Part shown: positions 5 through 52,941 of the stretch, one piece after another
Numbering within the stretch: the first letter of the stretch is position 1
Layout: each line of letters begins with the position of its first letter
Origin: a virus
Reading direction: 5' to 3' (one strand)
Virus record (IMG/VR): IMGVR_UViG_3300018984_000007
Location: 1-52,941 of that record
DNA length: 52,941 bases
Notes under the pieces: model-generated
The model's database searches: none
What the model saw: the letters and a program-made list of their open reading frames with translations, nothing else
What the model was told of the DNA's origin: nothing
Program-made: the position numbers and the translations under genes

Positions 5-130
5 GTGGTGGCGGTTTCCCCGGTTCGGTGGTGGTCCCGGACCATCGCGGCTTACCTCATCACGCTAACTTACAAGCGTGGCAAGGACGTTCCCGAGGAC
101 GAGCCAGCTCGGCTGCGGTACGACGAAGTG
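5..130. repeat. Left copy of 126-bp terminal direct repeat
   Basis: Bases 5-130 are identical to 52816-52941, so the contig ends overlap by 126 bp. Bases 1-4 do not match the corresponding bases 52812-52815. The same reading frame continues through both copies, so this is most simply the overlap of a circular assembly (a circularly permuted or end-joined phage genome) and not a biological duplication. A true short terminal repeat cannot be excluded from sequence alone. Confidence 0.9.
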
Positions 131-22966: not shown

Positions 22967-25555
22967 ATGGTCCGAGTTTCCGGCCGCAATGACCTTTCGC
23001 CCCTCGAATACATTGAACTGTACGACTCCCATGGGTTAAACGTCTTCCCCGCCAAGTACCGGGACAAGCCGCCGATCGTCAAATGGCAGCAGCACCAGGC
23101 ATCCGGGGTCACGCGCAAGACAATGGAAAACTGGTTCAGCGGATCAAACAAACTGAACTTTTGGATCATGACAGGCAACGCCAGTAAGCTGATCGTGATC
23201 GACGCCGACTCGCCAGAAGGTGACGCATGGTGGCGATCTCGGCTTGGCGACAGCCTACTCGACAACACCGCGATCGTTCAGAGCCGCAAGGGCAAACATT
23301 ACTACTTTCGCATACCGGCCGACTGGGACAAGACAGTCCCCTCGTGGTCAGTTCACCCTGGTCCTGGCGACGAATTCCTAGAATCATTTGACTTCTCGGC
23401 CGAGGGCCGAGGTGTAATCGCTCCCCCCTCAGTTCATGAATCCGGCTTCCACTATGAGTGGCTTCGACCGCTGGAACACCTGACCGAAGCACCCATAGAG
23501 CTGCTGGACGGCCGGTTCCGGGACGAGGCTCCTGGCGCACGGGAGAACGCCACGGGTGGTGGCGGTACCGACTGGCGCGGAGAGCCGCGTAGCCTCCTGG
23601 CGCGGCTGCTGGCGAGCCCGCCTGCCGAGGGTGGCCGGAACGACTGGATGGCCCGCGTTGCGGGTCACTATGCCAAGATGCATCACGACCAGCACGATCT
23701 GTACGTTGCTCAATGTGAAGCGCAGAACCACCGGCTCGGACCGCCACTATCCCAAGAGGAACTGACCAAGACGCTCGACTCGATCTGGAAGTCGGAGCAT
23801 GAGAACAACCCGCAACGCGCGTTATCGGAGAAGACCGGCTGGTTGAAGGGCAACGGCAAGTCGCTGTTCACCCAAGTCCAAGAGAAGCACGGCGAGTCGG
23901 TTGACTATGGTATCGCGCCGTGGGCAAACTTCGATATCACCGCCACTGGTGTGACAAGGGGAATCGACCAGGCACAGACCTATTTGGTCGTGCTGCGCAC
24001 CGAGGATGGTGACCTGGAACTGCAGTTGCCTGGTGCGTTGCTGGGCGACGACCGCGCGTTGAAGAAGTGGTTGGCTAGCTTCGGCGCGATCGTTACTCAG
24101 CCTGGCAACACGTTCCCTCGTGACGGTTGGACCCCCGGCACGCGACTTCAACACTACATCAAAGCACAGAAGCCACCGGCCGTTCACCTGTCCGAGGCGC
24201 TAGGCTGGGACCCCGAGGCGCTGGACGGCGAGGGTGCGTTCGTCACGCACGACGGCATCATCTTGGCCGAGGGGTCGATTCCGAGCGAGAAGTGCGGAAT
24301 CCGGGCCGCCAGCATCCTGCTGACTAGCGGGGTCGCACCTCACCAGTACGGGTTCCAGGGCAGCGAGCACGACGCGATGATGGTGTTGGACGAGGTATTG
24401 TCGTTCCACGATCCGGTCGTCACGTCCGTGTTCGGTGCATGGTGGGCCGCCTGCTGGTTGAAGCCTCAACTACACGCGCTCGCGTCGATGTTCCCCTTCA
24501 TGGGAATCCAGGCTCCGTCCGAATCCGGCAAGACGAGCGGGTTCTTCGGCATGATGATCCAGCTCAATGGCAACACGAGTGGGGAGCAGGTCCCAACGTA
24601 CGCCGCGTTGCGCAACATGGTGGCCGGTCACAGCAACGGCATGGTGTGGGTCGACGACATGGACGACCCGAACAAGATGATGGAGCTGCTGCGTGCTGCG
24701 ACCGGCAACGGCATCATCACTAAGATGGGTGAGGACCGGACTACCACGTCGAAGCAGAAGATGCGGGCACCTGTGGTCCTGTCCGGTGAGCACCTGGGGT
24801 TGGCGTCGCAGAAAGCGCTGGCCGACCGGTCGGTGGCGATCAGTGTCGGTTCTCCCACCAGTCGAATGTCACGTCACGACCCGGCCCGCATCCAGTGGCT
24901 GGATATCGTCGACCTCAAGAAGCAGTACCCCAAGGGTCTGTCGGTGCTGGCCGGTTGGTACGCCATGAAATCGCTGCAGGTCGAGGCCGAGGTGTGCGAC
25001 GTTTACGTCCAGGCTCGCAAGCGTGGGGGTGGCGGTCGCGTGGCGGACAAGGCGGCGATCTTGCTGGCCGGTGCCTGCCTGCTGGACCACCTGTGTGGTC
25101 ACGAGGACCCGTGGGGCCAGCAGGGTGAGCACGCGATGCGGGTATCCGACTGGTTGGACGGGACGGCCAAGCATGTCCTCGCGGCAGACAACGCTCTTAC
25201 GATGGAAGTCGCGCCTTGGGCATTGCGTGCGCACAACTTCCCGTCTAAGCCGGAGTTTGACGAGCACAAGGGCTACAATACACCGGTCTTTGTTGAGGGT
25301 GACCCGGAAGAGCTGGGCGGGTTTAAGGTCTGGATCAGTGCGGCTGATTTGGCCGACGCGTGGAAGCGGCACAACCCCCGAGCCGAACTCCGCACAGCGT
25401 CGAAAGACGCGCTGAACGAGCAGCTCAACGTCATCTCGCCGGGCAACAAGTACCGCAAGCAGAAGCGAATCACCAACACCAACCGGCCGTATTACAAGTA
25501 CATCGAGGGTGAGTACGCGCTGGCCGTGTTTAATCGCGCGCAGGGTACCTCTTGA
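22967..25555 (+). CDS. Bifunctional primase-polymerase with helicase ATPase domain
   Basis: An 862-residue protein from ATG 22967 after AGGAG. Residues about 10-190 are a prim-pol (archaeo-eukaryotic primase) domain: GLNVFPAKYRDKPPIVKW, catalytic LIVIDAD (Asp79, Asp81), then the YYFRIPA strand. A linker of Gly and charged residues leads to a P-loop domain with Walker A ESGKTSG near residue 517 and Walker B MVWVDDMDD near 560. It should prime and unwind DNA at the phage origin, which probably lies immediately downstream (25556-26035). Two dispersed motif copies (23558 and 25028) encode Gly runs. Confidence 0.87.
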   Translation: MVRVSGRNDLSPLEYIELYDSHGLNVFPAKYRDKPPIVKWQQHQASGVTRKTMENWFSGSNKLNFWIMTGNASKLIVIDADSPEGDAWWRSRLGDSLLDNTAIVQSRKGKHYYFRIPADWDKTVPSWSVHPGPGDEFLESFDFSAEGRGVIAPPSVHESGFHYEWLRPLEHLTEAPIELLDGRFRDEAPGARENATGGGGTDWRGEPRSLLARLLASPPAEGGRNDWMARVAGHYAKMHHDQHDLYVAQCEAQNHRLGPPLSQEELTKTLDSIWKSEHENNPQRALSEKTGWLKGNGKSLFTQVQEKHGESVDYGIAPWANFDITATGVTRGIDQAQTYLVVLRTEDGDLELQLPGALLGDDRALKKWLASFGAIVTQPGNTFPRDGWTPGTRLQHYIKAQKPPAVHLSEALGWDPEALDGEGAFVTHDGIILAEGSIPSEKCGIRAASILLTSGVAPHQYGFQGSEHDAMMVLDEVLSFHDPVVTSVFGAWWAACWLKPQLHALASMFPFMGIQAPSESGKTSGFFGMMIQLNGNTSGEQVPTYAALRNMVAGHSNGMVWVDDMDDPNKMMELLRAATGNGIITKMGEDRTTTSKQKMRAPVVLSGEHLGLASQKALADRSVAISVGSPTSRMSRHDPARIQWLDIVDLKKQYPKGLSVLAGWYAMKSLQVEAEVCDVYVQARKRGGGGRVADKAAILLAGACLLDHLCGHEDPWGQQGEHAMRVSDWLDGTAKHVLAADNALTMEVAPWALRAHNFPSKPEFDEHKGYNTPVFVEGDPEELGGFKVWISAADLADAWKRHNPRAELRTASKDALNEQLNVISPGNKYRKQKRITNTNRPYYKYIEGEYALAVFNRAQGTS

Positions 25556-26318: not shown

Positions 26319-26355
26319 CCACCGGCCCCCAGGATAGACCCTTCAAGGAGTGAAT

Positions 26356-28383
26356 GTGGCCGATCCAATCAAGCCGTCCGACCTGCTGGTGCTGATGCGA
26401 AATAACATGACGATTGGCCCCATGGCAGTGGACACCGAAACGAGTGGCCTGTTCGAGGACGACGGCGCGCGAATCTCAACCGTGTCACTCGCATTCAAAG
26501 TTCCGGACAAGATGTTTCCGATTTTGTATAACTGGGCCGGAGACGACCGCATTACGCTTCGTGTTGAAGATATAGCGCAGGGTCATACTGCAATGATCGC
26601 ATCGATCGCGTGGCCGGTGGATCAAGGTCGGGACGGCAAGCCTGAGGCGCACGGCGCAACACCGCTTTGGCCTGAGGCTGAGAATCTGCCCGACGACGAA
26701 TGGGACATCCTACTTCGCATCTTGAACCAGCACAGCTTGATCATGCACAATAGCAAGTTCGACTGCCACAAGTTCCGGGTTGGACTGCGGACACGGCCGG
26801 ACACCGGGATCGACCTGATGGACCGCGTGGCGTGGGACACGCAGAACGTGAACGACCTGTTGTGGGGTTGGGAGAAGACCGGTCTCAAGTCGACCGCTGC
26901 CCGGCTTTGGGGCAAGGAATGGGAAGACGAGAGCGCCAAGGTTTCGGCCTACCTCAAGAAGGCCAAGCTCCCGGCCGGTCGATGGGACCTCGTGCCGTGG
27001 GACGTGATCGGTCCGTACGCCGACACCGATGCGCGCTTGACGCTGATGTTATACCTGCGTCAGCAGCATGAAATCCACCACATGGGTGGCGGTTCTTGGC
27101 TTGGCGATCACCTGGACGTGATCTCAACTGCGCACCGTCGGCTTGACGTTACTCGCATGCTATACCGGATGGAGAACAAGGGCATCCCGTACGACCAGAT
27201 CAAGTCGAAGTTGACCGGGTTCGAGTGCGAAGAGCGAGCGAAGAAGATCGCACGCAAGCTGCCGTTCAGCCCGCCGACCGTCAACAAGGCCAAGCACTAC
27301 TGGTTCGGTGAAGAGGCAAAGGGTGGTCGCGGCATGATCCCCTACTCGACGACCGAAGGTGGCCAGCCACAGCTCACGGCCGAGATCGTGGCGAGGATGG
27401 TCGAAGACGGAGTCGAGCACGCCAGGACCTGGGCCGAATATGTCAAGGTCACGGACGCCGCGTCGATGTGGTATCACGGTTACGCCGACAAGGTTGGCGT
27501 GGACGGCCGACTGCGCACCAGCTTCCGGCAGAACGGAACCCGCAGCTCCCGGTTCTCGGTCGAGCGGGTCAACCTGCAGGCGATTCCGGCGAACTACAAG
27601 CTCGGCGGTTACGCCAGCCTTGAAGGACTGCCGACACCACGCGACCTGATCGCGTCGGCCGTGCCCGAGGGCTGGGCAATCTGGGAACTGGACCTAATGC
27701 AGGCTGAGCTGCGGGTCGCGGCGCTCATGGCGAAGTGTCAGCCAATGTTGGACATGATGGAGCGCGGACAGGACCTGCACGACTACACCACCCAAGCGCT
27801 GTTCAACATGGACAAGAGCCATCCCGAGTGGGACCGATACCGGCAGGTTGGCAAGCGGGCAAATTTCTCGCTATGCTTCGGCAGTGGCGCACGCACCTTC
27901 GACAACATGATTTCGAAGGAAGCGGGTATGCAGCTTGGTGAGCGTGAATGTCGACGCATCGTAACCGAGTGGAATGGACTGTACCCCGAGTTCCACGATG
28001 CGATCCAGCGGCACATGGACACGGTGGTCCGGCGTCAGCTCAAGTTCCAGAACGGTTGGGTTTCGTACAAGAATGGTGAGCGGCGCTGGTTCCAGCAATA
28101 TGAGGATGCGCACAAAGCTTTTAATCAACGTGTGCAGGGGAACCTGGCGCAGTACGGTATCGACTGGCTGCTGTTCACTGACCACTACCTGCGGCAGATG
28201 AAGGAACTGGAAGAGGCGAACGCTGGCCTCATCCTCGCGATCCACGACTCGCAGGTTCTGCTCCTGCCGGACAGCCCGCTAGGACAACGAATCGCAGAGC
28301 GGTGCGCCGGTTTCGCCAACGACCTTTGGCAACAGTGGTTCCCAGGGGTGGGTGGCGGTTCTAGCCCGAAGCGGTGGGGTTAA
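26356..28383 (+). CDS. Family A DNA polymerase with 3'-5' exonuclease, DpoZ-like
   Basis: A 675-residue protein. GTG 26356 lies five bases after AAGGAG; GTG 26350 overlaps that site. Exonuclease motifs: Asp26-Thr-Glu28 (VDTETSG), Asn132/Asp136 (NSKFD), Tyr221/Asp225 (YADTD). There is no 5'-3' nuclease domain. Polymerase motif A is ELDLMQAELR (Asp446); motif B is RQVGKRANFSLCFG, keeping Lys500 and Phe504 but with Phe508 where Pol I has Tyr; motif C is IHDSQ (Asp631) with Ser632 where Pol I has Glu. Adjacent to PurZ, it is a candidate DpoZ, the polymerase that favours 2-aminoadenine. Two dispersed motif copies lie within it. Confidence 0.85.
   Translation: MADPIKPSDLLVLMRNNMTIGPMAVDTETSGLFEDDGARISTVSLAFKVPDKMFPILYNWAGDDRITLRVEDIAQGHTAMIASIAWPVDQGRDGKPEAHGATPLWPEAENLPDDEWDILLRILNQHSLIMHNSKFDCHKFRVGLRTRPDTGIDLMDRVAWDTQNVNDLLWGWEKTGLKSTAARLWGKEWEDESAKVSAYLKKAKLPAGRWDLVPWDVIGPYADTDARLTLMLYLRQQHEIHHMGGGSWLGDHLDVISTAHRRLDVTRMLYRMENKGIPYDQIKSKLTGFECEERAKKIARKLPFSPPTVNKAKHYWFGEEAKGGRGMIPYSTTEGGQPQLTAEIVARMVEDGVEHARTWAEYVKVTDAASMWYHGYADKVGVDGRLRTSFRQNGTRSSRFSVERVNLQAIPANYKLGGYASLEGLPTPRDLIASAVPEGWAIWELDLMQAELRVAALMAKCQPMLDMMERGQDLHDYTTQALFNMDKSHPEWDRYRQVGKRANFSLCFGSGARTFDNMISKEAGMQLGERECRRIVTEWNGLYPEFHDAIQRHMDTVVRRQLKFQNGWVSYKNGERRWFQQYEDAHKAFNQRVQGNLAQYGIDWLLFTDHYLRQMKELEEANAGLILAIHDSQVLLLPDSPLGQRIAERCAGFANDLWQQWFPGVGGGSSPKRWG
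27084..27097 (+). repeat. Dispersed motif GGGTGGCGGTTCTT
   Basis: Copy in the polymerase gene between exonuclease and polymerase domains, read as MGGGSW. Confidence 0.8.
28345..28361 (+). repeat. Dispersed motif GGGGTGGGTGGCGGTTC
   Basis: Copy at the extreme C-terminus of the polymerase, read as GVGGGSS, just before the stop. Confidence 0.75.
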
Positions 28384-28472
28384 TGCCTACACTACATAAG
28401 CGCAAGCGTCGGCGCAAGAACAGTTCGGCCGCCACGGCTCGGATCAAGCGCAAGAAGAAGGGCAACCGGTAA
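28383..28472 (+). CDS. 29-residue highly basic peptide
   Basis: ATG 28383 overlaps the polymerase stop (TAATG) and ends at TAA 28472, which overlaps the next ATG. The product is MPTLHKRKRRRKNSSAATAR followed by IKRKKKGNR: more than half of the residues are Lys or Arg. It could bind DNA or RNA non-specifically. Coupling on both sides supports real translation. Confidence 0.6.
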   Translation: MPTLHKRKRRRKNSSAATARIKRKKKGNR

Positions 28473-28588
28473 TGGAGTGGTCGCATTTCGGAACCGTAAT
28501 GGCGCAGGTCGTGATCGCGTCGATGACCGGCGCGATCATCTTCATCATGCTGACCTCGGCATGGGACTCGTGGAGGAAGCCCAAGTGA
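28472..28588 (+). CDS. 38-residue membrane microprotein
   Basis: ATG 28472 follows the basic peptide's stop; TGA at 28586-28588 overlaps the next GTG. The sequence MEWSHFGTVMAQVVIASMTG continues into a hydrophobic helix (AIIFIMLTSAW) and a basic tail, so it is a single-pass membrane peptide. No family recognised. Confidence 0.6.
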   Translation: MEWSHFGTVMAQVVIASMTGAIIFIMLTSAWDSWRKPK

Positions 28589-28704
28589 ACGACCTCGCGC
28601 GTAACTTCGGGATCGGTGCTCTCATCGGGTTTACGATCTTCGCTACTGTCTTGATCCTCGCAGTCATCGGGTACAACATCTACGAGAGGAATCACCGCAG
28701 GTGA
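28585..28704 (+). CDS. 39-residue membrane microprotein
   Basis: GTG 28585 overlaps the previous stop. Residues about 8-30 (FGIGALIGFTIFATVLILAV) are one transmembrane helix, followed by a basic end (YERNHRR). Its stop overlaps the PurZ start GTG 28701. Together with the previous gene it makes a pair of membrane microproteins lodged between polymerase and PurZ. Confidence 0.6.
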   Translation: MNDLARNFGIGALIGFTIFATVLILAVIGYNIYERNHRR

Positions 28705-29765
28705 AGCTGGACGTGATCGTCGGTGGACAATACGGGTCGGAAGCTAAGGGTCACGTTACCCAGCGCGTGATTGAGCGTGCGCTAACGCTGAACCCGGACG
28801 AGCAGGTGGTCAACATTCGTGTGGCGGGACCGAACGCCGGTCACACTGGGCACAACATCTACGGCAAGGCCATGGCGTTCAGGACTCTGCCGATCGGTGC
28901 GCTGATTCCTGGTGTGGAATGCGTGGTGGCGGCCGGGTCTGAAATCCAGCCGCAGGTTTTGCTCAATGAGATCGACGCAGCCAAGTCGATCGGGTTCGAC
29001 GCCAGCTACCTGATGGTGGACCGTGAGGCGACCGTCATCGAAGACCGGCATCACGAGCGTGAGACTAACGCAGGTCTGGTCCACAAGCTGGGGTCGACCG
29101 GCAAAGGAGTCGGCGCGGCACGAGCCGACCGACTGATGCGGCAGGCAAAGCGCGTAATCGATGACGGCGTATTCATCGACGAGTTGGAAGCACGTGGCGT
29201 TCGAATCACGAACACGGCATACGACTTAGCGTTGCGTAGCGACGACGGCCGGATTGTGATCGAGGGTACGCAGGGGTTCGGGCTGGGACTTCACGCCGGG
29301 CTGTACCCGCACTGTACGTCATCCGATTGTCGGGCAATCGACTTCATGAGCATGGCTGGCGTCATGCCGTGGCAGTTCGACTACACCAGTCTTAAGGTGT
29401 GGGTCACGTGTCGGGTGTTCCCGATTCGAGTCGCTGGTAATAGCGGACCGATGACGAATGAAACGAGTTGGGACGCGTTGGGTCTGCCGACCGAGTACAC
29501 GACTGTGACGAAGAAGCCAAGGCGCGTAGGATATTGGGATCAGGCGTTAGTGCGAGCTGCGGTGTTGGCGAATGGTGGTGCGCCGACTGTGGCGCTCGCG
29601 ATCACCATGCTGGACCAGTTGTTTCCTAACACGAAGGGGATCAAGGAAACGCACAAGCTGATCACTGAAACGGACGCCATGGCATGGCTGACCAAGGTGC
29701 AGGACGAGTCGTACGCCAGGATCGAACTCGTCACTACCGGACCCAATACAGGAGTGTTCCTCTGA
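28701..29765 (+). CDS. purZ: PurZ: adenylosuccinate synthetase-like enzyme of the 2-aminoadenine pathway
   Basis: A 354-residue protein, shorter than bacterial PurA (about 430). The N-terminal loop is VGGQYGSEAKGHV: residue 13, the catalytic Asp of PurA (GDEGKG), is Ser, the hallmark of phage PurZ, which condenses dGMP with aspartate in the path to 2-aminoadenine. Other PurA signatures are kept: RVAGPNAGHTGH, LGSTGKGVGAARADR, IEGTQGFGLGLHAGLYPH and TKKPRRVGYWD. Host PurB and kinases would finish dZTP. The gene starts GTG 28701, coupled to the membrane microproteins and just behind the polymerase, the order seen in Z-genome phages. I see no obvious datZ (HD-type dATPase). Confidence 0.85.
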   Translation: MKLDVIVGGQYGSEAKGHVTQRVIERALTLNPDEQVVNIRVAGPNAGHTGHNIYGKAMAFRTLPIGALIPGVECVVAAGSEIQPQVLLNEIDAAKSIGFDASYLMVDREATVIEDRHHERETNAGLVHKLGSTGKGVGAARADRLMRQAKRVIDDGVFIDELEARGVRITNTAYDLALRSDDGRIVIEGTQGFGLGLHAGLYPHCTSSDCRAIDFMSMAGVMPWQFDYTSLKVWVTCRVFPIRVAGNSGPMTNETSWDALGLPTEYTTVTKKPRRVGYWDQALVRAAVLANGGAPTVALAITMLDQLFPNTKGIKETHKLITETDAMAWLTKVQDESYARIELVTTGPNTGVFL

Positions 29766-30463
29766 TGTGTGGATGTAAGGCTCACGGCGACAACGACGAG
29801 TTCTGCCGGTGCGGTTGCCCCGAGCACAACAATCGGGTCAAAGTGGACGGTAACAACATGGTTCACATCACCGACGCACGATACCAGGTGATGAAGCAGG
29901 CGGAGGAGACGCTGCAGAACCCGGACCTGATCACCATCAGCAGGGTCGAATACGATGCGTTCCGCGCCGCGTACCAGCGGGCCGAAGGTGTGATTGCCCC
30001 GCCGAAAGAGACACAGACGGTCTCGTTCGATGTAAAGCTGGAGCCGGGTGCAATGGAGGCGCTCGGGTTCACCGTTCGGGACGAGGGTGCCCCTGGTGCG
30101 GGTGGCGGTCGTGCCGCCGAGATCAAAGACCGGGTGCGTGAAATCACTCACTGGTGGACCTCGCACGCGGTGAACGTGATCGAGCGGACCGCACCGAAGG
30201 CCGCGCAATACGGCGCTGCTGACCTCGATTTGATGGGTCAGGCGATGGAGTCGCAGTACGCCGAGGCGATCAAATGGATGACGCCGGAAGAGCGTAAGAC
30301 GTTTGGTCGATACGCGGCGTGCGCGTTCTACGCGTTGGGCAAGGTCGCTCGTATCCAGGGTGCGCTCGAACGTGGTGAGCTGCCGCACTCGGACTCGGAG
30401 TTCGACTTGGAGGTCTATGCAGTGATGATGACCTGCATTCGTCAGACGGGTCGCTGGGTCTAG
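29765..30463 (+). CDS. Zinc-ribbon plus helical domain protein next to PurZ, possibly nucleotide hydrolase
   Basis: A 232-residue protein. ATG 29765 overlaps the PurZ stop (TGATG), so the two are co-translated. Residues 2-24 form a Cys/His cluster (MCGCKAHGDNDEFCRCGCPE). Residues about 120-230 form a helical bundle with KAAQYGAADLDLMGQAMESQ, GRYAACAFYALGKVARIQGA and a final DLEVYAVMMTCIRQTGRW. That last pattern recalls helical proteins often found near nucleotide metabolism genes in actinophages and, loosely, MazG-type all-alpha pyrophosphohydrolases. Given its position it could supply the dGTP/dATP hydrolysis that Z synthesis needs, but this is inference. Confidence 0.55.
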   Translation: MCGCKAHGDNDEFCRCGCPEHNNRVKVDGNNMVHITDARYQVMKQAEETLQNPDLITISRVEYDAFRAAYQRAEGVIAPPKETQTVSFDVKLEPGAMEALGFTVRDEGAPGAGGGRAAEIKDRVREITHWWTSHAVNVIERTAPKAAQYGAADLDLMGQAMESQYAEAIKWMTPEERKTFGRYAACAFYALGKVARIQGALERGELPHSDSEFDLEVYAVMMTCIRQTGRWV

Positions 30464-30512: not shown

Positions 30513-31028
30513 GTGAAGAAGATCGCAACAGTGGTTACGGGTCTGATGCTGACCCTGGCCGGTGTGGTGGGGATCTCATCTCCCGCGTCGGCTGTCGCGC
30601 CAGGTTACTGCCCGGCTGGGCCGGGGCAGAATTGCTTCCGCAATTTTGCCAACTGTACAACGACTGACTCGTCGGCTGGCGCGATGAGCGTGGTTGTCTA
30701 CCACGTGCGGAGTTCGGGTGGCTTGTCTACCCGAGTTTACTTCCTCCGCGCAATCTCCGCGTCGGATGGTTATCACAAGGTCCTCGACTTCTCGAAGACC
30801 TCTGGTGGTGGCGGTACGACGTATTGGACCATCACTGCTCCGTTCGGGGACACACACCTGAACGGGACCACCCACCCGGAGGAAAGCTACGGGAACAGTG
30901 GTCTGGCTTGGGCATCGATCTCACAGAACCCTGTGGTCAAGACTCGGTACCAGGCAACCGCCTTCTATGGCGGGAACGTCACGCACTGCAATGTCCCGCT
31001 CGACTTCTCTACCTCCTACATCGGCTGA
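30513..31028 (+). CDS. Secreted protein, paralogue A
   Basis: A 171-residue protein from GTG 30513 after GGAAAGGAACC. The N-terminus (VKKIATVVTGLMLTLAGVVG, then ISSPASA) is a classical Sec signal peptide with A-x-A cleavage. The mature part contains CPAGPGQNCFRNFANCTTTDSS, a VVVYHVRSSGGLSTRVYFLR strand pair, SGGGGTTYW and a C-terminal Cys near HCNVPL. It is the first of three tandem, clearly related exported proteins (next at 31039 and 31587). Exported phage proteins may alter the host surface, for example to exclude other phages; no known family is recognised. Confidence 0.8.
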   Translation: MKKIATVVTGLMLTLAGVVGISSPASAVAPGYCPAGPGQNCFRNFANCTTTDSSAGAMSVVVYHVRSSGGLSTRVYFLRAISASDGYHKVLDFSKTSGGGGTTYWTITAPFGDTHLNGTTHPEESYGNSGLAWASISQNPVVKTRYQATAFYGGNVTHCNVPLDFSTSYIG

Positions 31029-31038
31029 GAGGAACCAC

Positions 31039-31575
31039 GTGAAGACCAAGATCTTCGCGCTGTTCGCGGCACTGGCGTTCGCGCTGGGTGTCACGAGCAT
31101 CGCTCCCGCCAACGCAGCTCCGCGCGCATCCGCGCCGGTTCTGTCCAATCACACCAGCACGCTGTGCCACAGCGGTTGGGTCTGCTACCGCAACTGGAAC
31201 AACTGCAACACGGCCGACTCCAGCACCGGCCAGGTCGGTGTCGAGGTCATCTCTCGCGCGTCCACCTCCGGTGCGTCGGCTCAGGTTCTGCAGGTGCGGT
31301 ACAGCTCCACGTCCAGCCAAAACTTCCGTGTCGACTGGTCGAAGTACGCGACCGGTGGAGGCGGAACGACCTACTGGTTCACCAGCTCGCCTGTCGGCGA
31401 CGCGTGGGTCGGTTTTGGCTACCCGGACAAGATCTACCAGCCGGTCGACTCGGCGTGGGGAACCTACTCGCAGAACGCCAGCGTGTGGAACTACCTGTCG
31501 CCGCGCAGTGATGAGTCGGATGTCAAGACCTCCTGCACCGTGCTCCTTACCAAGGCCAACTCCTACAGCGGATGA
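31039..31575 (+). CDS. Secreted protein, paralogue B
   Basis: A 178-residue protein. GTG 31039 follows GAGAGGAACC; the open frame upstream lies over paralogue A. The signal peptide is VKTKIFALFAALAFALGVTS followed by IAPANA-A. The mature part matches its neighbours: CHSGWVCYRNWNNCNTADSS, a SGASAQVLQVRY segment, TGGGGTTYWF, a WGTYSQN stretch and CTVLLTKAN near the end. Four Cys in conserved places suggest two disulfides. Confidence 0.8.
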   Translation: MKTKIFALFAALAFALGVTSIAPANAAPRASAPVLSNHTSTLCHSGWVCYRNWNNCNTADSSTGQVGVEVISRASTSGASAQVLQVRYSSTSSQNFRVDWSKYATGGGGTTYWFTSSPVGDAWVGFGYPDKIYQPVDSAWGTYSQNASVWNYLSPRSDESDVKTSCTVLLTKANSYSG

Positions 31576-31586
31576 AGGGCAATCAC

Positions 31587-32129
31587 ATGAAGAAGATCTT
31601 TGCGCTGTTCGCGTCGCTGGCGTTCGCAGCCAGCCTCGCGGCAGCTGCTCCTGCCAACGCAGCTCCGGCTGCGCCAGCTCCGGCCGTCATGGTGCCGGTC
31701 CTGACTGTCACCCCCGACGACTGTGGCAGCGGTAACGTCTGCTACAAGAACTGGCAGAACTGCCCCGCACAGGACGGTGCTGGCAGCGTCGCGGCCACCG
31801 TGTACCACCGCACCTCGATCTCCGGCTCGTCTGCTCAGGTGATCGGCATCCAGTGGAACAACGCCACCACGCGTTGGATGAAGCTCGGTGCCTGGTACAA
31901 GCAGTCCGGTGGTGGAGGCACGACCTACTGGTTCCGTGACGAGTTCAACGTCCCCACGTCGTACCACATGAACGGCGGGACCAACATCAGGTGGTGGGAG
32001 AACAACCTTCCCTGGGCTTCGTATTCGGTGAACCCGAAGGTGACCTCGGTGTTCGAGCCGCAGGCTGTTTACCCGCAGACGGACTGCGTCGTGAACCTGA
32101 CCAAGGCGAACCGCGTCTACAGCTGGTGA
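31587..32129 (+). CDS. Secreted protein, paralogue C
   Basis: A 180-residue protein. ATG 31587 (MKKIFALF) gives a clean signal peptide ending APANAA; ATG 31572 in the same frame is an alternative. The mature part repeats the family pattern: DDCGSGNVCYKNWQNC, SGSSAQVIGIQW, QSGGGGTTYWF, PWASYSVNPKV and CVVNLTKAN. It is more similar to paralogue B than to A. It is closed by a strong hairpin at 32141-32169. Confidence 0.8.
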   Translation: MKKIFALFASLAFAASLAAAAPANAAPAAPAPAVMVPVLTVTPDDCGSGNVCYKNWQNCPAQDGAGSVAATVYHRTSISGSSAQVIGIQWNNATTRWMKLGAWYKQSGGGGTTYWFRDEFNVPTSYHMNGGTNIRWWENNLPWASYSVNPKVTSVFEPQAVYPQTDCVVNLTKANRVYSW

Positions 32130-32196: not shown

Positions 32197-32877
32197 ATGG
32201 TGGTCATGAACTTGGGCCGGTTGAAGCAGCACGACGAGCGGTCGCGGCAGTTCGCGTTCAGTTCGCGTGCAGCTGAGTCGATCCAGATCAAGGACAAGGG
32301 TTGGACCCACTACGGCGCGGTGTCCGATCAGGGGGTAACCAGCGCGTGCGTCGGATTCACCGGCCTGGACTGGCGCAACACGCGACCGGCGAAGCAGCCG
32401 AAGAAGGTGTACTACGAGAACACGGCGTTCGACGACTACCGTGGCGCGACGCTGCACGACGCGTGGCCCGGCGAGTGGCCGGACGTGGACAATGGAAGCA
32501 GCGGGCTGGGTCTGTGTAAATACTTCAAGTCGATCGGCGTAATCGACCGGTACGAGTGGGCGTTCGGGTTCGAGTCGTTCCTGCACATGATGATGCGGGG
32601 TCCGGTGTCGGTCGGCATCGAGTGGACCGAGGGCATGTTCTACCCCGACAAGTACGGGCAGATAAGCCCGACCGGCCGGACTGTCGGCGGACATCAGCTG
32701 CTAGCCACCAGTGTGGACGTGAACAAGCAGTATGGGGGTGGCGGTCGTGTCTGGCTGCTCAACCACTGGTCCAAGCGGTGGGGTGTCAACGGCCGAGCGT
32801 GGATGACGTTTACTGACTTCGACAACCGGCTGCGCGCCGACGGCGACGCAGTCCTGATGATTAAGGACCCGGCATGA
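32197..32877 (+). CDS. Papain-like (C1-type) cysteine protease
   Basis: A 226-residue protein from ATG 32197 after GGAGCGAAC. All papain-fold landmarks are in order: Gln45 and Cys51 in VSDQGVTSACVGF, His166 in VGGHQLLAT, and Asn189 in LLNHWSKRWGVNGRAWM, which parallels the NSWG-x-W-G-x-x-G signature. There is no signal peptide or pro-region, so it should act in the cytoplasm, or in exported form by an unusual route. It follows the three secreted paralogues and precedes nucleotide-metabolism genes. The target is unknown: host proteins, or a phage protein. A dispersed motif core (32737-32745) encodes its GGGG run before the Asn motif. Confidence 0.78.
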   Translation: MVVMNLGRLKQHDERSRQFAFSSRAAESIQIKDKGWTHYGAVSDQGVTSACVGFTGLDWRNTRPAKQPKKVYYENTAFDDYRGATLHDAWPGEWPDVDNGSSGLGLCKYFKSIGVIDRYEWAFGFESFLHMMMRGPVSVGIEWTEGMFYPDKYGQISPTGRTVGGHQLLATSVDVNKQYGGGGRVWLLNHWSKRWGVNGRAWMTFTDFDNRLRADGDAVLMIKDPA

Positions 32878-33271: not shown

Positions 33272-33399
33272 ACTTGCTTCTGAACTGCCGGTCTTGCCGC
33301 ACTAACTTCGACAGCATTCAAGGTGCTGACGATCACGAGATGACCAACGACGAAACTTGTTTCCTGGCTCAGTACACGATCGTTAGGGATGCTGAATGA
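33268..33399 (+). CDS. 43-residue Cys-containing microprotein
   Basis: GTG 33268 overlaps the zinc-finger stop; the TGA at 33397-33399 overlaps the next ATG. The product (VNLLLNCRSCRTNFDSIQGA, then a C in DETCFLAQY) has a C-x2-C pair. Coupled on both sides; no family recognised. Confidence 0.55.
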   Translation: MNLLLNCRSCRTNFDSIQGADDHEMTNDETCFLAQYTIVRDAE

Positions 33400-34364
33400 C
33401 ACCCCCTCGCATGGTCTATATGGCCTACCCAATAGACCTGATCGCGGGCCGTGACGATGTCCGGCCGCTGTTCGAGACGATCGAGAACCTCAAGCCTGCG
33501 CTGATGGACGCTGGGGTCGATATAATCTTCGATCCCGGTGATGCATTCATGGTCAACGCGGCGGCCAGGGTCGGGCACGAGCTGCGGTCGATCAACCAGG
33601 CCGCGCTGGATGCGGCCGATGCGATGGTGGCGGTCCTGCCCTCCGGCCTGCCGTCCATCGGGGTCCCGATGGAAATCGACCACGCGGTCAAGCAGGGCAA
33701 GACGGTCGCGGTGATGACCGACACCAAGGCATGGATGCTGGGGTTCGGTGATTACCCCAACGTGAAGACCTTCCCGATCGAAGAGGCGGGCTGGGTCCAG
33801 ATGATCCTGTGGATGGTAGCTTCACATCTGCGGGTCGAAGAGTCGAAGCAGATCCAGGTCGAGGCACTGCCGTTCCAACGCGCGTACAAGGCGGAATGCG
33901 GCAAGTACGGTGTGCACGACGCACACGATTACGGCGAGCACATGGCCGATCGTTGCGACGGCGTGCCGGATTGCACCCCGCGACGCGTTCACCATAACGA
34001 CGCGGGCTGGGACCTGATCGTGGCTGAAACGACATTGATCCGGCCTGGCCAGCAGGTTGATATCCCAATGGGGGTGGCGGTTGCACTGCCCGAGTGGTCA
34101 TTCGGTCGAATCACCGGCCGGTCGTCGACACTGCGGAAGCTCAACGTCCTCGTCAATGAGGGCATTATTGATGCCGGATACCGGGGACCACTTTACGCGC
34201 TGTGTCGCAACATGGGCACCGAGAACGTGCGAATCGACGCCGGATCCAGGGTCGCACAGCTCATCATCCACGAAAACCACGCGCCGGAAGTTGAGCCGGT
34301 CGCGGTACTCGATCTGCCGGAATCAACACGAGGGGACCGTGGTTTTGGTAGTACGGGAACGTGA
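33396..34364 (+). CDS. Fusion of deoxyribosyltransferase-like domain and dUTPase
   Basis: A 322-residue protein. Residues 1-145 resemble nucleoside 2-deoxyribosyltransferases (VYMAYPIDL start, DAADAMVAVL strand, probable catalytic Glu93 in GVPMEIDHA). Residues about 165-195 are Cys/His-rich and may bind zinc. Residues 196-322 hold all five dUTPase motifs: NDAGWDL (202-206), GRSS (241-244), GIIDAGYRG (256-264), GSRVAQL (283-289) and RGDRGFGST (312-320). The dUTPase part should convert dUTP to dUMP; the first domain may exchange bases on deoxynucleosides, useful if the phage changes its purine pool. Two dispersed motif cores (33626, 34073) are read here in the V-A-V frame. Confidence 0.8.
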   Translation: MTPPRMVYMAYPIDLIAGRDDVRPLFETIENLKPALMDAGVDIIFDPGDAFMVNAAARVGHELRSINQAALDAADAMVAVLPSGLPSIGVPMEIDHAVKQGKTVAVMTDTKAWMLGFGDYPNVKTFPIEEAGWVQMILWMVASHLRVEESKQIQVEALPFQRAYKAECGKYGVHDAHDYGEHMADRCDGVPDCTPRRVHHNDAGWDLIVAETTLIRPGQQVDIPMGVAVALPEWSFGRITGRSSTLRKLNVLVNEGIIDAGYRGPLYALCRNMGTENVRIDAGSRVAQLIIHENHAPEVEPVAVLDLPESTRGDRGFGSTGT

Positions 34365-52626: not shown

Positions 52627-52941
52627 GTGTACTCGTCGGTAGACGATGTTCGTAACGCGTTGGCCCCTGGAGGGTCGGCGTCTGACACCGGAACCGCTGC
52701 GGCGGTCGAGGACAACCAAATCCAAGACGCCATTGCCGAGGCGGACGGCATCATCTCGGTGCATATCGCGTCGCGGTACGAGATTCCGCTGGACATGACC
52801 GCCACCCCACCTGGTGTGGTGGCGGTTTCCCCGGTTCGGTGGTGGTCCCGGACCATCGCGGCTTACCTCATCACGCTAACTTACAAGCGTGGCAAGGACG
52901 TTCCCGAGGACGAGCCAGCTCGGCTGCGGTACGACGAAGTG
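52627..52941 (+). CDS. Head-tail connector, Gp36/DUF1320-like (N-terminal part; continues at 131-331)
   Basis: GTG 52627 follows CCAGGAGGCTAAC. This is the start of the connector gene whose C-terminal part opens the window; 105 codons lie here, and bases 131-331 add 67 codons including the stop. The end 52816-52941 repeats bases 5-130. See the entry at 5-331 for the function. The product reads through a near-perfect DNA palindrome at 52798-52826 (MTATPPGVVAV). Confidence 0.75.
   Translation, partial: MYSSVDDVRNALAPGGSASDTGTAAAVEDNQIQDAIAEADGIISVHIASRYEIPLDMTATPPGVVAVSPVRWWSRTIAAYLITLTYKRGKDVPEDEPARLRYDEV
52798..52826. repeat. 29-base palindrome formed by facing dispersed motifs
   Basis: A minus motif core (ACCGCCACC, 52798-52806) faces a plus core (GGTGGCGGT, 52818-52826); 13 of 14 base pairs match around T52812. 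The contig break (52816 equals position 5) falls inside it. Confidence 0.75.
52816..52941. repeat. Right copy of 126-bp terminal direct repeat
   Basis: Identical to 5-130; shows that the two ends of the window are contiguous in the genome. Confidence 0.9.

What the first reader, a model, noticed from the sequence alone, without database searches (positions are those of the whole stretch)
26356..29765. Likely 2-aminoadenine (Z) genome: PurZ plus DpoZ-like polymerase
PurZ here has Ser at the position of the PurA catalytic Asp (GSEAKG instead of GDEGKG), is shortened to 354 residues, and lies just after a family A polymerase with exonuclease but no 5'-3' nuclease domain. Phage PurZ and DpoZ pairs are known to make and use dZTP so that Z replaces A in the genome. 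Z in this phage is inferred. I see no clear HD-type DatZ or standard MazZ, so either a different enzyme fills that role or replacement is partial.
Basis: partly seen in the sequence, partly recalled or inferred. Interest (0 to 1): 0.75.

Follow-up and report, generated by a model that had tools for sequence, protein, structure and literature searches.

The report
Phage with Z-DNA (2-aminoadenine) gene set
This uncultured phage, probably of an actinobacterium, carries the complete known gene set of the PurZ0 type for building its DNA with 2-aminoadenine (Z) in place of adenine, so it is a new and rather diverged member of a known kind, and it points to one uncharacterised gene that always travels with that set.

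Summary
The window carries a PurZ-type synthetase (28701-29765+, Ser where PurA has its catalytic Asp) 3' of a family A polymerase with an exonuclease and no 5'-3' nuclease (26350-28383+). Trees place both inside the phage PurZ0 and DpoZ-1 clades, so a Z genome is very likely. At 33396-34364+ lies a DmtZ-DutZ fusion, the PurZ0-type substitute for DatZ/MazZ characterised in Arthrobacter phage Wayne (PMC12884076), with every tested catalytic residue conserved. DatZ, MazG, DUF550 and DUF5664 are absent from a contig whose ends overlap by 126 bp, so partial replacement need not be invoked. One thing looks new: the gene overlapping the purZ stop (29765-30463+). In 80 of 80 related virus loci the place 3' of purZ0 holds either this gene (66) or DUF5664 (14), never both. 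AlphaFold gives a confident four-helix fold without a PDB match. I propose that it is a nucleotide-pool enzyme replacing DUF5664; that step is inference. Z itself was not measured. Verdict: new member of a known kind, with one testable gap.

The parts
26350..28383 (+). DpoZ-1-type (Wayne-like) family A DNA polymerase with 3'-5' exonuclease, 677 aa; Phe510 at the steric-gate position of helix O
   Evidence: DNA_pol_A 7e-26; 48% identity over 99% to polymerases of PurZ0 Arthrobacter phages; in a clade with PurZ0-phage polymerases (nine rows 99/100; all ten 100/100)
28477..28704 (+). 75-aa ORF between dpoZ and purZ, predicted by eye to have one membrane helix; function unknown
   Evidence: only; not tested
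28701..29765 (+). PurZ0-type 2-amino-adenylosuccinate synthetase, 354 aa, Ser13 in place of the PurA catalytic Asp
29765..30463 (+). Gene D, 232 aa: its ATG overlaps the purZ stop (TGATG); conserved C-terminal domain at 30110-30460; candidate nucleotide-pool enzyme
33396..34364 (+). DmtZ-DutZ fusion, 322 aa: N-terminal NDT-like dAMP hydrolase/transferase (DmtZ), C-terminal dUTPase-fold dATP/dGTP diphosphatase (DutZ)
   Evidence: dUTPase 5.5e-22, Nuc_deoxyrib_tr 0.0015; residues equivalent to Ghobes DmtZ Y6, D12, P57, N77, E103 conserved as Y8, D14, P47, N67, E93
22967..25555 (+). Prim-Pol/PriCT primase upstream of dpoZ, part of the replication block that is in the same order in PurZ0 Arthrobacter phages
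   Evidence: order compared with Pterodactyl and Wayne

Best explanation
The window is an essentially complete phage genome that encodes the PurZ0-type Z pathway and most likely replaces A by 2-aminoadenine (Z) throughout its DNA. PurZ0 condenses dGMP with aspartate to dSMP; host PurB and host kinases carry it through dZMP to dZTP (no phage PurB was found). The DutZ half of the fusion hydrolyses dATP and dGTP to monophosphates, which starves A incorporation and feeds dGMP to PurZ0. The DmtZ half destroys dAMP or moves its deoxyribose-phosphate onto free Z base to give dZMP. DpoZ-1 then uses dZTP in preference to dATP. Gene D, which overlaps the purZ stop codon, is probably a further pool enzyme in the place that DUF5664 takes in Arthrobacter phages. 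Shown here: presence, clade membership, conserved catalytic residues, gene linkage. Taken from published work on relatives: the enzyme activities. Inferred: Z in this phage, and the role of gene D.
For: PurZ: phrog_1211 at 2e-86; best PDB match PurZ0 7VF6; inside the phage PurZ0 clade, SH-aLRT 99, apart from PurA, chromosomal Ser-type homologues and PurZ of phiVC8, S-2L and SH-Ab. Polymerase: clade with PurZ0-phage polymerases, 99/100 and 100/100, apart from nine polymerases of phages picked as unlikely Z phages and from E. coli; Phe510, the one change shared by both DpoZ clades (PMC8599892). DmtZ-DutZ fusion of the Wayne type with all five tested DmtZ residues kept (PMC12884076). Same gene order in Pterodactyl, Wayne, Parvaparticeps and L094. 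No DatZ, MazG, DUF550 or DUF5664 in a contig with a 126-bp end overlap.
Against: No sequence computation can show Z in the virion. PurZ and polymerase are only about 50% identical to any relative, so substrate preference was not tested. Some polymerases of other PurZ0 phages carry Tyr, not Phe, at the steric gate, so that residue is a weak marker. The tree places the window PurZ next to Wayne only with modest support.
Confidence: 0.9

Rival explanations
1. The phage makes dZTP but replaces A only partly, because it lacks a dATP-specific DatZ.
For: No HD-type DatZ in the window.
Against: The DmtZ-DutZ fusion supplies dATP and dAMP removal; per PMC12884076 all 98 PurZ0 genomes examined there have dutZ. 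The polymerase is of the dZTP-selective Wayne-like type (PMC8599892).
Confidence: 0.06
2. The PurA-like gene is an ordinary or chromosomal-type adenylosuccinate synthetase that has lost or changed activity and has nothing to do with Z.
For: Ser-type PurA-like proteins exist on bacterial and archaeal chromosomes outside any phage module.
Against: The window protein lies in the phage PurZ0 clade and not with the chromosomal clade, and has DpoZ, gene D and DmtZ-DutZ as neighbours, whereas the chromosomal clade mostly has RNase_H_2/DUF429 and DCD-like neighbours.
Confidence: 0.02
3. Gene D is a structural or regulatory partner of PurZ0 (for instance a subunit) and not a pool enzyme. (This concerns gene D only, not the Z-genome reading.)
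For: It overlaps the purZ stop codon; the four-helix model has no enzyme match in the PDB; no clear family hit.
Against: It takes exactly the place of DUF5664, a dATP/dGTP diphosphohydrolase, in a mutually exclusive way; invariant K, R and D residues look like an active site; weak profile and fold links to DUF6378-type phage domains.
Confidence: 0.4

Closest known systems
PurZ0/DpoZ-1/DmtZ-DutZ system of Arthrobacter phage Wayne (Korravirus; PMC12884076)
   Same: Same order primase, dpoZ, purZ0, pool gene, dmtZ-dutZ fusion; same fusion architecture; same clades for PurZ and polymerase
   Different: About 47% (PurZ), 48% (polymerase) and 34-39% (fusion) identity to phages of this group; gene D in place of DUF5664; no HNH gene between polymerase and purZ; three tandem secreted paralogues and a papain-like peptidase between gene D and dmtZ-dutZ
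PurZ0 system of Gordonia phages Ghobes and Archimedes
   Same: PurZ0 followed directly by a gene D homologue, then DmtZ and DutZ
   Different: dmtZ and dutZ are separate genes there; those phages encode their own PurB, which was not found in the window
PurZ/DatZ/MazZ Z-clusters of phiVC8, S-2L and SH-Ab 15497
   Same: Ser at the Asp13 position of PurA; same overall pathway idea
   Different: Different PurZ clade, DpoZ-2 or PrimPol polymerase, DatZ plus MazZ or DUF550; none of these pool enzymes is found here
IMG/VR contig 3300049259_000054 (L094)
   Same: Same four-gene order; gene D domain 62-66% identical
   Different: In the trees its PurZ and polymerase do not pair with those of the window; uncultured

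Membership tests
PurZ0 (phage 2-amino-adenylosuccinate synthetase) | Ser replaces PurA Asp13 | tested here: met
   IVGGQYGSEAKG against VLGTQWGDEGKG in E. coli PurA
PurZ0 (phage 2-amino-adenylosuccinate synthetase) | Falls in the phage PurZ0 clade, not PurA, PurZ or the chromosomal Ser-type clade | tested here: met
   Tree of 57 rows, clade SH-aLRT 99 (quick search without bootstrap)
PurZ0 (phage 2-amino-adenylosuccinate synthetase) | Uses dGMP and aspartate to make dSMP | not testable with these tools
   Needs an enzyme assay
DpoZ-1 (Wayne-like Z-selective polymerase) | Family A polymerase with 3'-5' exonuclease and no 5'-3' nuclease | tested here: met
DpoZ-1 (Wayne-like Z-selective polymerase) | Clade of PurZ0-phage polymerases | tested here: met
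   99/100 for nine rows and 100/100 for all ten; window with Wayne, Parvaparticeps and Goodman at 88/89
DpoZ-1 (Wayne-like Z-selective polymerase) | Phe in place of the steric-gate Tyr of helix O | tested here: met
   Phe510 (CFGSG) in the alignment, position
DpoZ-1 (Wayne-like Z-selective polymerase) | Prefers dZTP to dATP | not testable with these tools
   Needs a polymerase assay
DmtZ-DutZ fusion | NDT-like domain with Tyr, Asn, Glu triad plus Asp12 and Pro57 equivalents, followed by a dUTPase domain | tested here: met
   Y8, N67, E93, D14, P47 in the alignment; Pfam hits
DmtZ-DutZ fusion | Hydrolyses dATP, dGTP and dAMP; transfers deoxyribose 5-phosphate to Z | not testable with these tools
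   Known for Wayne and Ghobes (PMC12884076)
DatZ/MazZ Z-cluster (PurZ type) | HD-type DatZ (PF12917) and MazG or DUF550 (PF03819, PF04447) present | tested here: not met
   Six-frame profile searches, no match at E up to 1
DUF5664-1 (PF18909) | dGTP_diPhyd_N domain 3' of purZ0 | tested here: not met
   No match in the window; gene D has no PF18909 hit whereas Wayne gp51 scores 3.5e-32; hhalign of gene D with DUF5664 probability 0.1-0.2
DUF6378-like or MazG-like nucleotide hydrolase (gene D) | Profile or fold similarity to a known member | tested here: inconclusive
   hhalign 84% with the L110 family; 1.4% with Salmonella phage 9NA gp29, taken to be its DUF6378 protein from its length of 268 aa; Foldseek BFVD DUF6378 E 0.14; nothing in the PDB

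The most novel reading that the evidence does not exclude
Gene D (29765-30463) is a so far uncharacterised, obligate component of the PurZ0 Z-DNA pathway: a four-helix enzyme that displaces, or is displaced by, the unrelated DUF5664 diphosphohydrolase and acts on dNTPs or on pathway intermediates.
Probability: 0.45. Interest if true: 0.6.

Novelty: new member of a known kind. Interest (0 to 1): 0.45.

Why it matters
It adds a diverged PurZ0 lineage with a natural DmtZ-DutZ fusion. It shows that the apparent lack of DatZ/MazZ is explained by a different, known enzyme set. The wider comparison shows that the PurZ0 module has a constant extra place next to purZ0, filled by one of two unrelated genes. 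One of these (DUF5664) is a known dATP/dGTP diphosphohydrolase; the other, present in 66 of 80 loci, has no known function and can be assayed at once. If gene D is a pool enzyme, the published PurZ0 pathway is incomplete outside Arthrobacter phages.

Tried and rejected
Looked for DatZ, MazG, DUF550, DUF5664 and PurB by six-frame profile search: none. Tried to file gene D under Pfam, PHROGs and PDB families: no convincing hit. Rejected homology of gene D with DUF5664 (hhalign probability 0.1-0.2); the link to DUF6378 and the L110 family stays weak. The first viral scan with the single PurZ sequence found no relative because its patterns were too specific; an alignment query worked. Considered that Ser at Asp13 alone proves a Z genome and rejected it because of the chromosomal Ser-type clade. 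Considered the Phe steric gate as a decisive marker and rejected it because 15 of 34 motif matches in PurZ0-locus polymerases have Tyr (at least two of those matches look spurious and two loci were counted twice). PADLOC gave nothing for the four module proteins of the window that were tested.

Full report
Setting. The window is a whole virus record of 52,941 bases, 60.7% G+C. Bases 5-130 are identical to the last 126 bases, so the two contig ends overlap and the genome is probably complete or nearly so, although IMG/VR classes it as linear. This matters because it makes statements of absence stronger. The host is not known; an actinobacterium is a guess from the hosts of the nearest relatives and the G+C content.

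Observation. The PurZ ORF (28701-29765+, 354 aa) and the polymerase ORF (26350-28383+, 677 aa) are present as described. Pfam gives adenylosuccinate synthetase (2e-37) and DNA_pol_A (7e-26) with a weak exonuclease hit. PHROGs gives the 2-aminooxy adenylosuccinate synthetase family (2e-86). The three exonuclease motifs are intact and no 5'-3' nuclease domain is seen. The short length of PurZ is ordinary for the phage group.

PurZ membership. tblastn finds 216 phage records, best about 47% identity over the full length; those listed are annotated as PurA-like or 2-aminooxy adenylosuccinate synthetase. The best solved structure is 7VF6, which PMC12884076 names as PurZ0 of Gordonia phage Archimedes. 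In a tree of 57 proteins the window falls inside the phage PurZ0 clade (SH-aLRT 99), away from E. coli and Pyrococcus PurA, from the phiVC8/S-2L/SH-Ab PurZ clade, and from a large chromosomal clade.

Polymerase membership. The polymerase is 48% identical over 99% of its length to those of PurZ0 Arthrobacter phages. In a tree with nine polymerases of phages picked as unlikely Z phages (their genomes were not searched for PurZ) and with the Klenow part of E. coli Pol I, all PurZ0-phage polymerases form one branch (100/100); the window lies within the nine-row core (99/100) and next to Wayne, Parvaparticeps, Goodman and Olihed (88/89). It has Phe510 at the helix O steric gate, the only characteristic change shared by both DpoZ clades according to PMC8599892. 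Tyr is found in Hiyaa and several uncultured PurZ0 loci, so this residue is supporting evidence only.

The missing enzyme. The role is filled by the ORF at 33396-34364+. Pfam sees a nucleoside deoxyribosyltransferase-like N-terminus (0.0015) and a dUTPase C-terminus (5.5e-22). PMC12884076 characterised exactly this fusion from Arthrobacter phage Wayne. DutZ hydrolyses dATP and dGTP (and dUTP). DmtZ hydrolyses dAMP to adenine and also transfers its deoxyribose-phosphate to Z base, giving dZMP. The residues tested there by mutation in Ghobes DmtZ (Y6, D12, P57, N77, E103) are all kept in the window as Y8, D14, P47, N67 and E93. That paper found dutZ in all 98 PurZ0 genomes it examined. So the window carries the full PurZ0-type set.

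Gene D. The ORF at 29765-30463+ starts in the purZ stop codon (TGATG). Its C-terminal 105-112 residues match a hypothetical protein in 30 phage records (18 Microbacterium, 6 Gordonia, 5 Streptomyces, 1 Micrococcus). The counts for the first three genera equal those of the PurZ search, and in the loci inspected the gene lies directly 3' of purZ0. Arthrobacter phages have DUF5664 there. I scored 80 IMG/VR PurZ0 loci with profiles: 66 have gene D, 14 have DUF5664, none has both and none lacks both. The 80 loci form 35 single-link clusters at 90% PurZ identity, 30 with gene D and 5 with DUF5664; at 60% identity all DUF5664 loci are one cluster, so the replacement by DUF5664 may be a single event. 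The gene D profile was built partly from phages of the same set, so its E-values are not independent; the BLAST matches are (L094, 66%; Archimedes, 2e-8). With 43 homologues AlphaFold2 gives a four-helix domain (mean pLDDT 91.8, pTM 0.78) with no PDB match below E of 2. A first model matched, after its own relatives, two DUF6378 phage proteins at E 0.14 and 0.37, and hhalign gives 84% with a phage domain family found through L110, in whose record no PurA/PurZ was found, but nothing with DUF5664. Invariant residues include K38, Y42, K86, R89, D103, D107 and R119 (numbering of the 125-residue domain). I take it as a probable nucleotide-pool enzyme that does the work of DUF5664; this is inference. 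I found no mention of it in the main text of PMC12884076 that I read (parts 1-5 of 7); its supplement could not be read.

Mechanism, shown and inferred. Shown: gene content, clades, residues, order. Established for relatives: PurZ makes dSMP from dGMP and aspartate; host enzymes finish dZTP; DutZ and DmtZ reshape the pool; Wayne-like DpoZ prefers dZTP (PMC12884076, PMC8599892). Inferred: these activities in this phage, near-complete Z for A replacement, and the job of gene D. Whether PurZ0 here uses ATP or GTP was not tested.

Verdict. A confirmed observation with a mostly right interpretation, corrected on the missing enzyme. As a system it is a new member of a known kind. The constant extra gene beside purZ0 is the part a specialist may not expect.

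Noticed in passing
L120-L198 (for example L133:3880-8816, L177:4367-8801): Bacterial and archaeal chromosomes carry a separate clade of Ser-type PurA-like proteins (GSEGKG) in a conserved operon: RNase_H_2 protein (with DUF429 in L133), PurA-like, dCTP-deaminase-like protein with a likely membrane part, and sometimes a deoxynucleoside or adenylate kinase. 60 of 79 loci have both flanking genes, 54 in that order and strand. Function unknown; it could be a nucleotide-based defence or a modification pathway.
   Followed up: partly
window 30513-32129: Three tandem genes for secreted proteins of about 170-185 aa (34-39% identical to each other, signal peptides by eye, CYxNWxNC-like and GGGGTTYW motifs) lie between gene D and dmtZ-dutZ. 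No Pfam hit for the first.
   Followed up: partly
window 5-130 and 52816-52941: A 126-bp identical direct repeat at the two ends (offset by four bases at the start), so the contig is probably a complete or circularly permuted genome although IMG/VR classes it as linear.
   Followed up: yes
L004:1715-4105 and several IMG/VR loci (L024, L030, L032, L042, L076, L083, L084, L086, L087, L090, L093): Polymerases of Hiyaa-type and other PurZ0 loci keep Tyr at the steric gate, so not all PurZ0 phages have the Phe mark of DpoZ.
   Followed up: partly
window 32197-32877: Papain-like peptidase (phrog_16701, 8e-48) inside the Z-gene region; Hiyaa also has an annotated peptidase (gp64) near its purZ.
   Followed up: no
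L119: A contig binned as Verrucomicrobia carries the phage module purZ0, gene D, dmtZ, dutZ: probably a phage or prophage contig binned with that genome.
   Followed up: no
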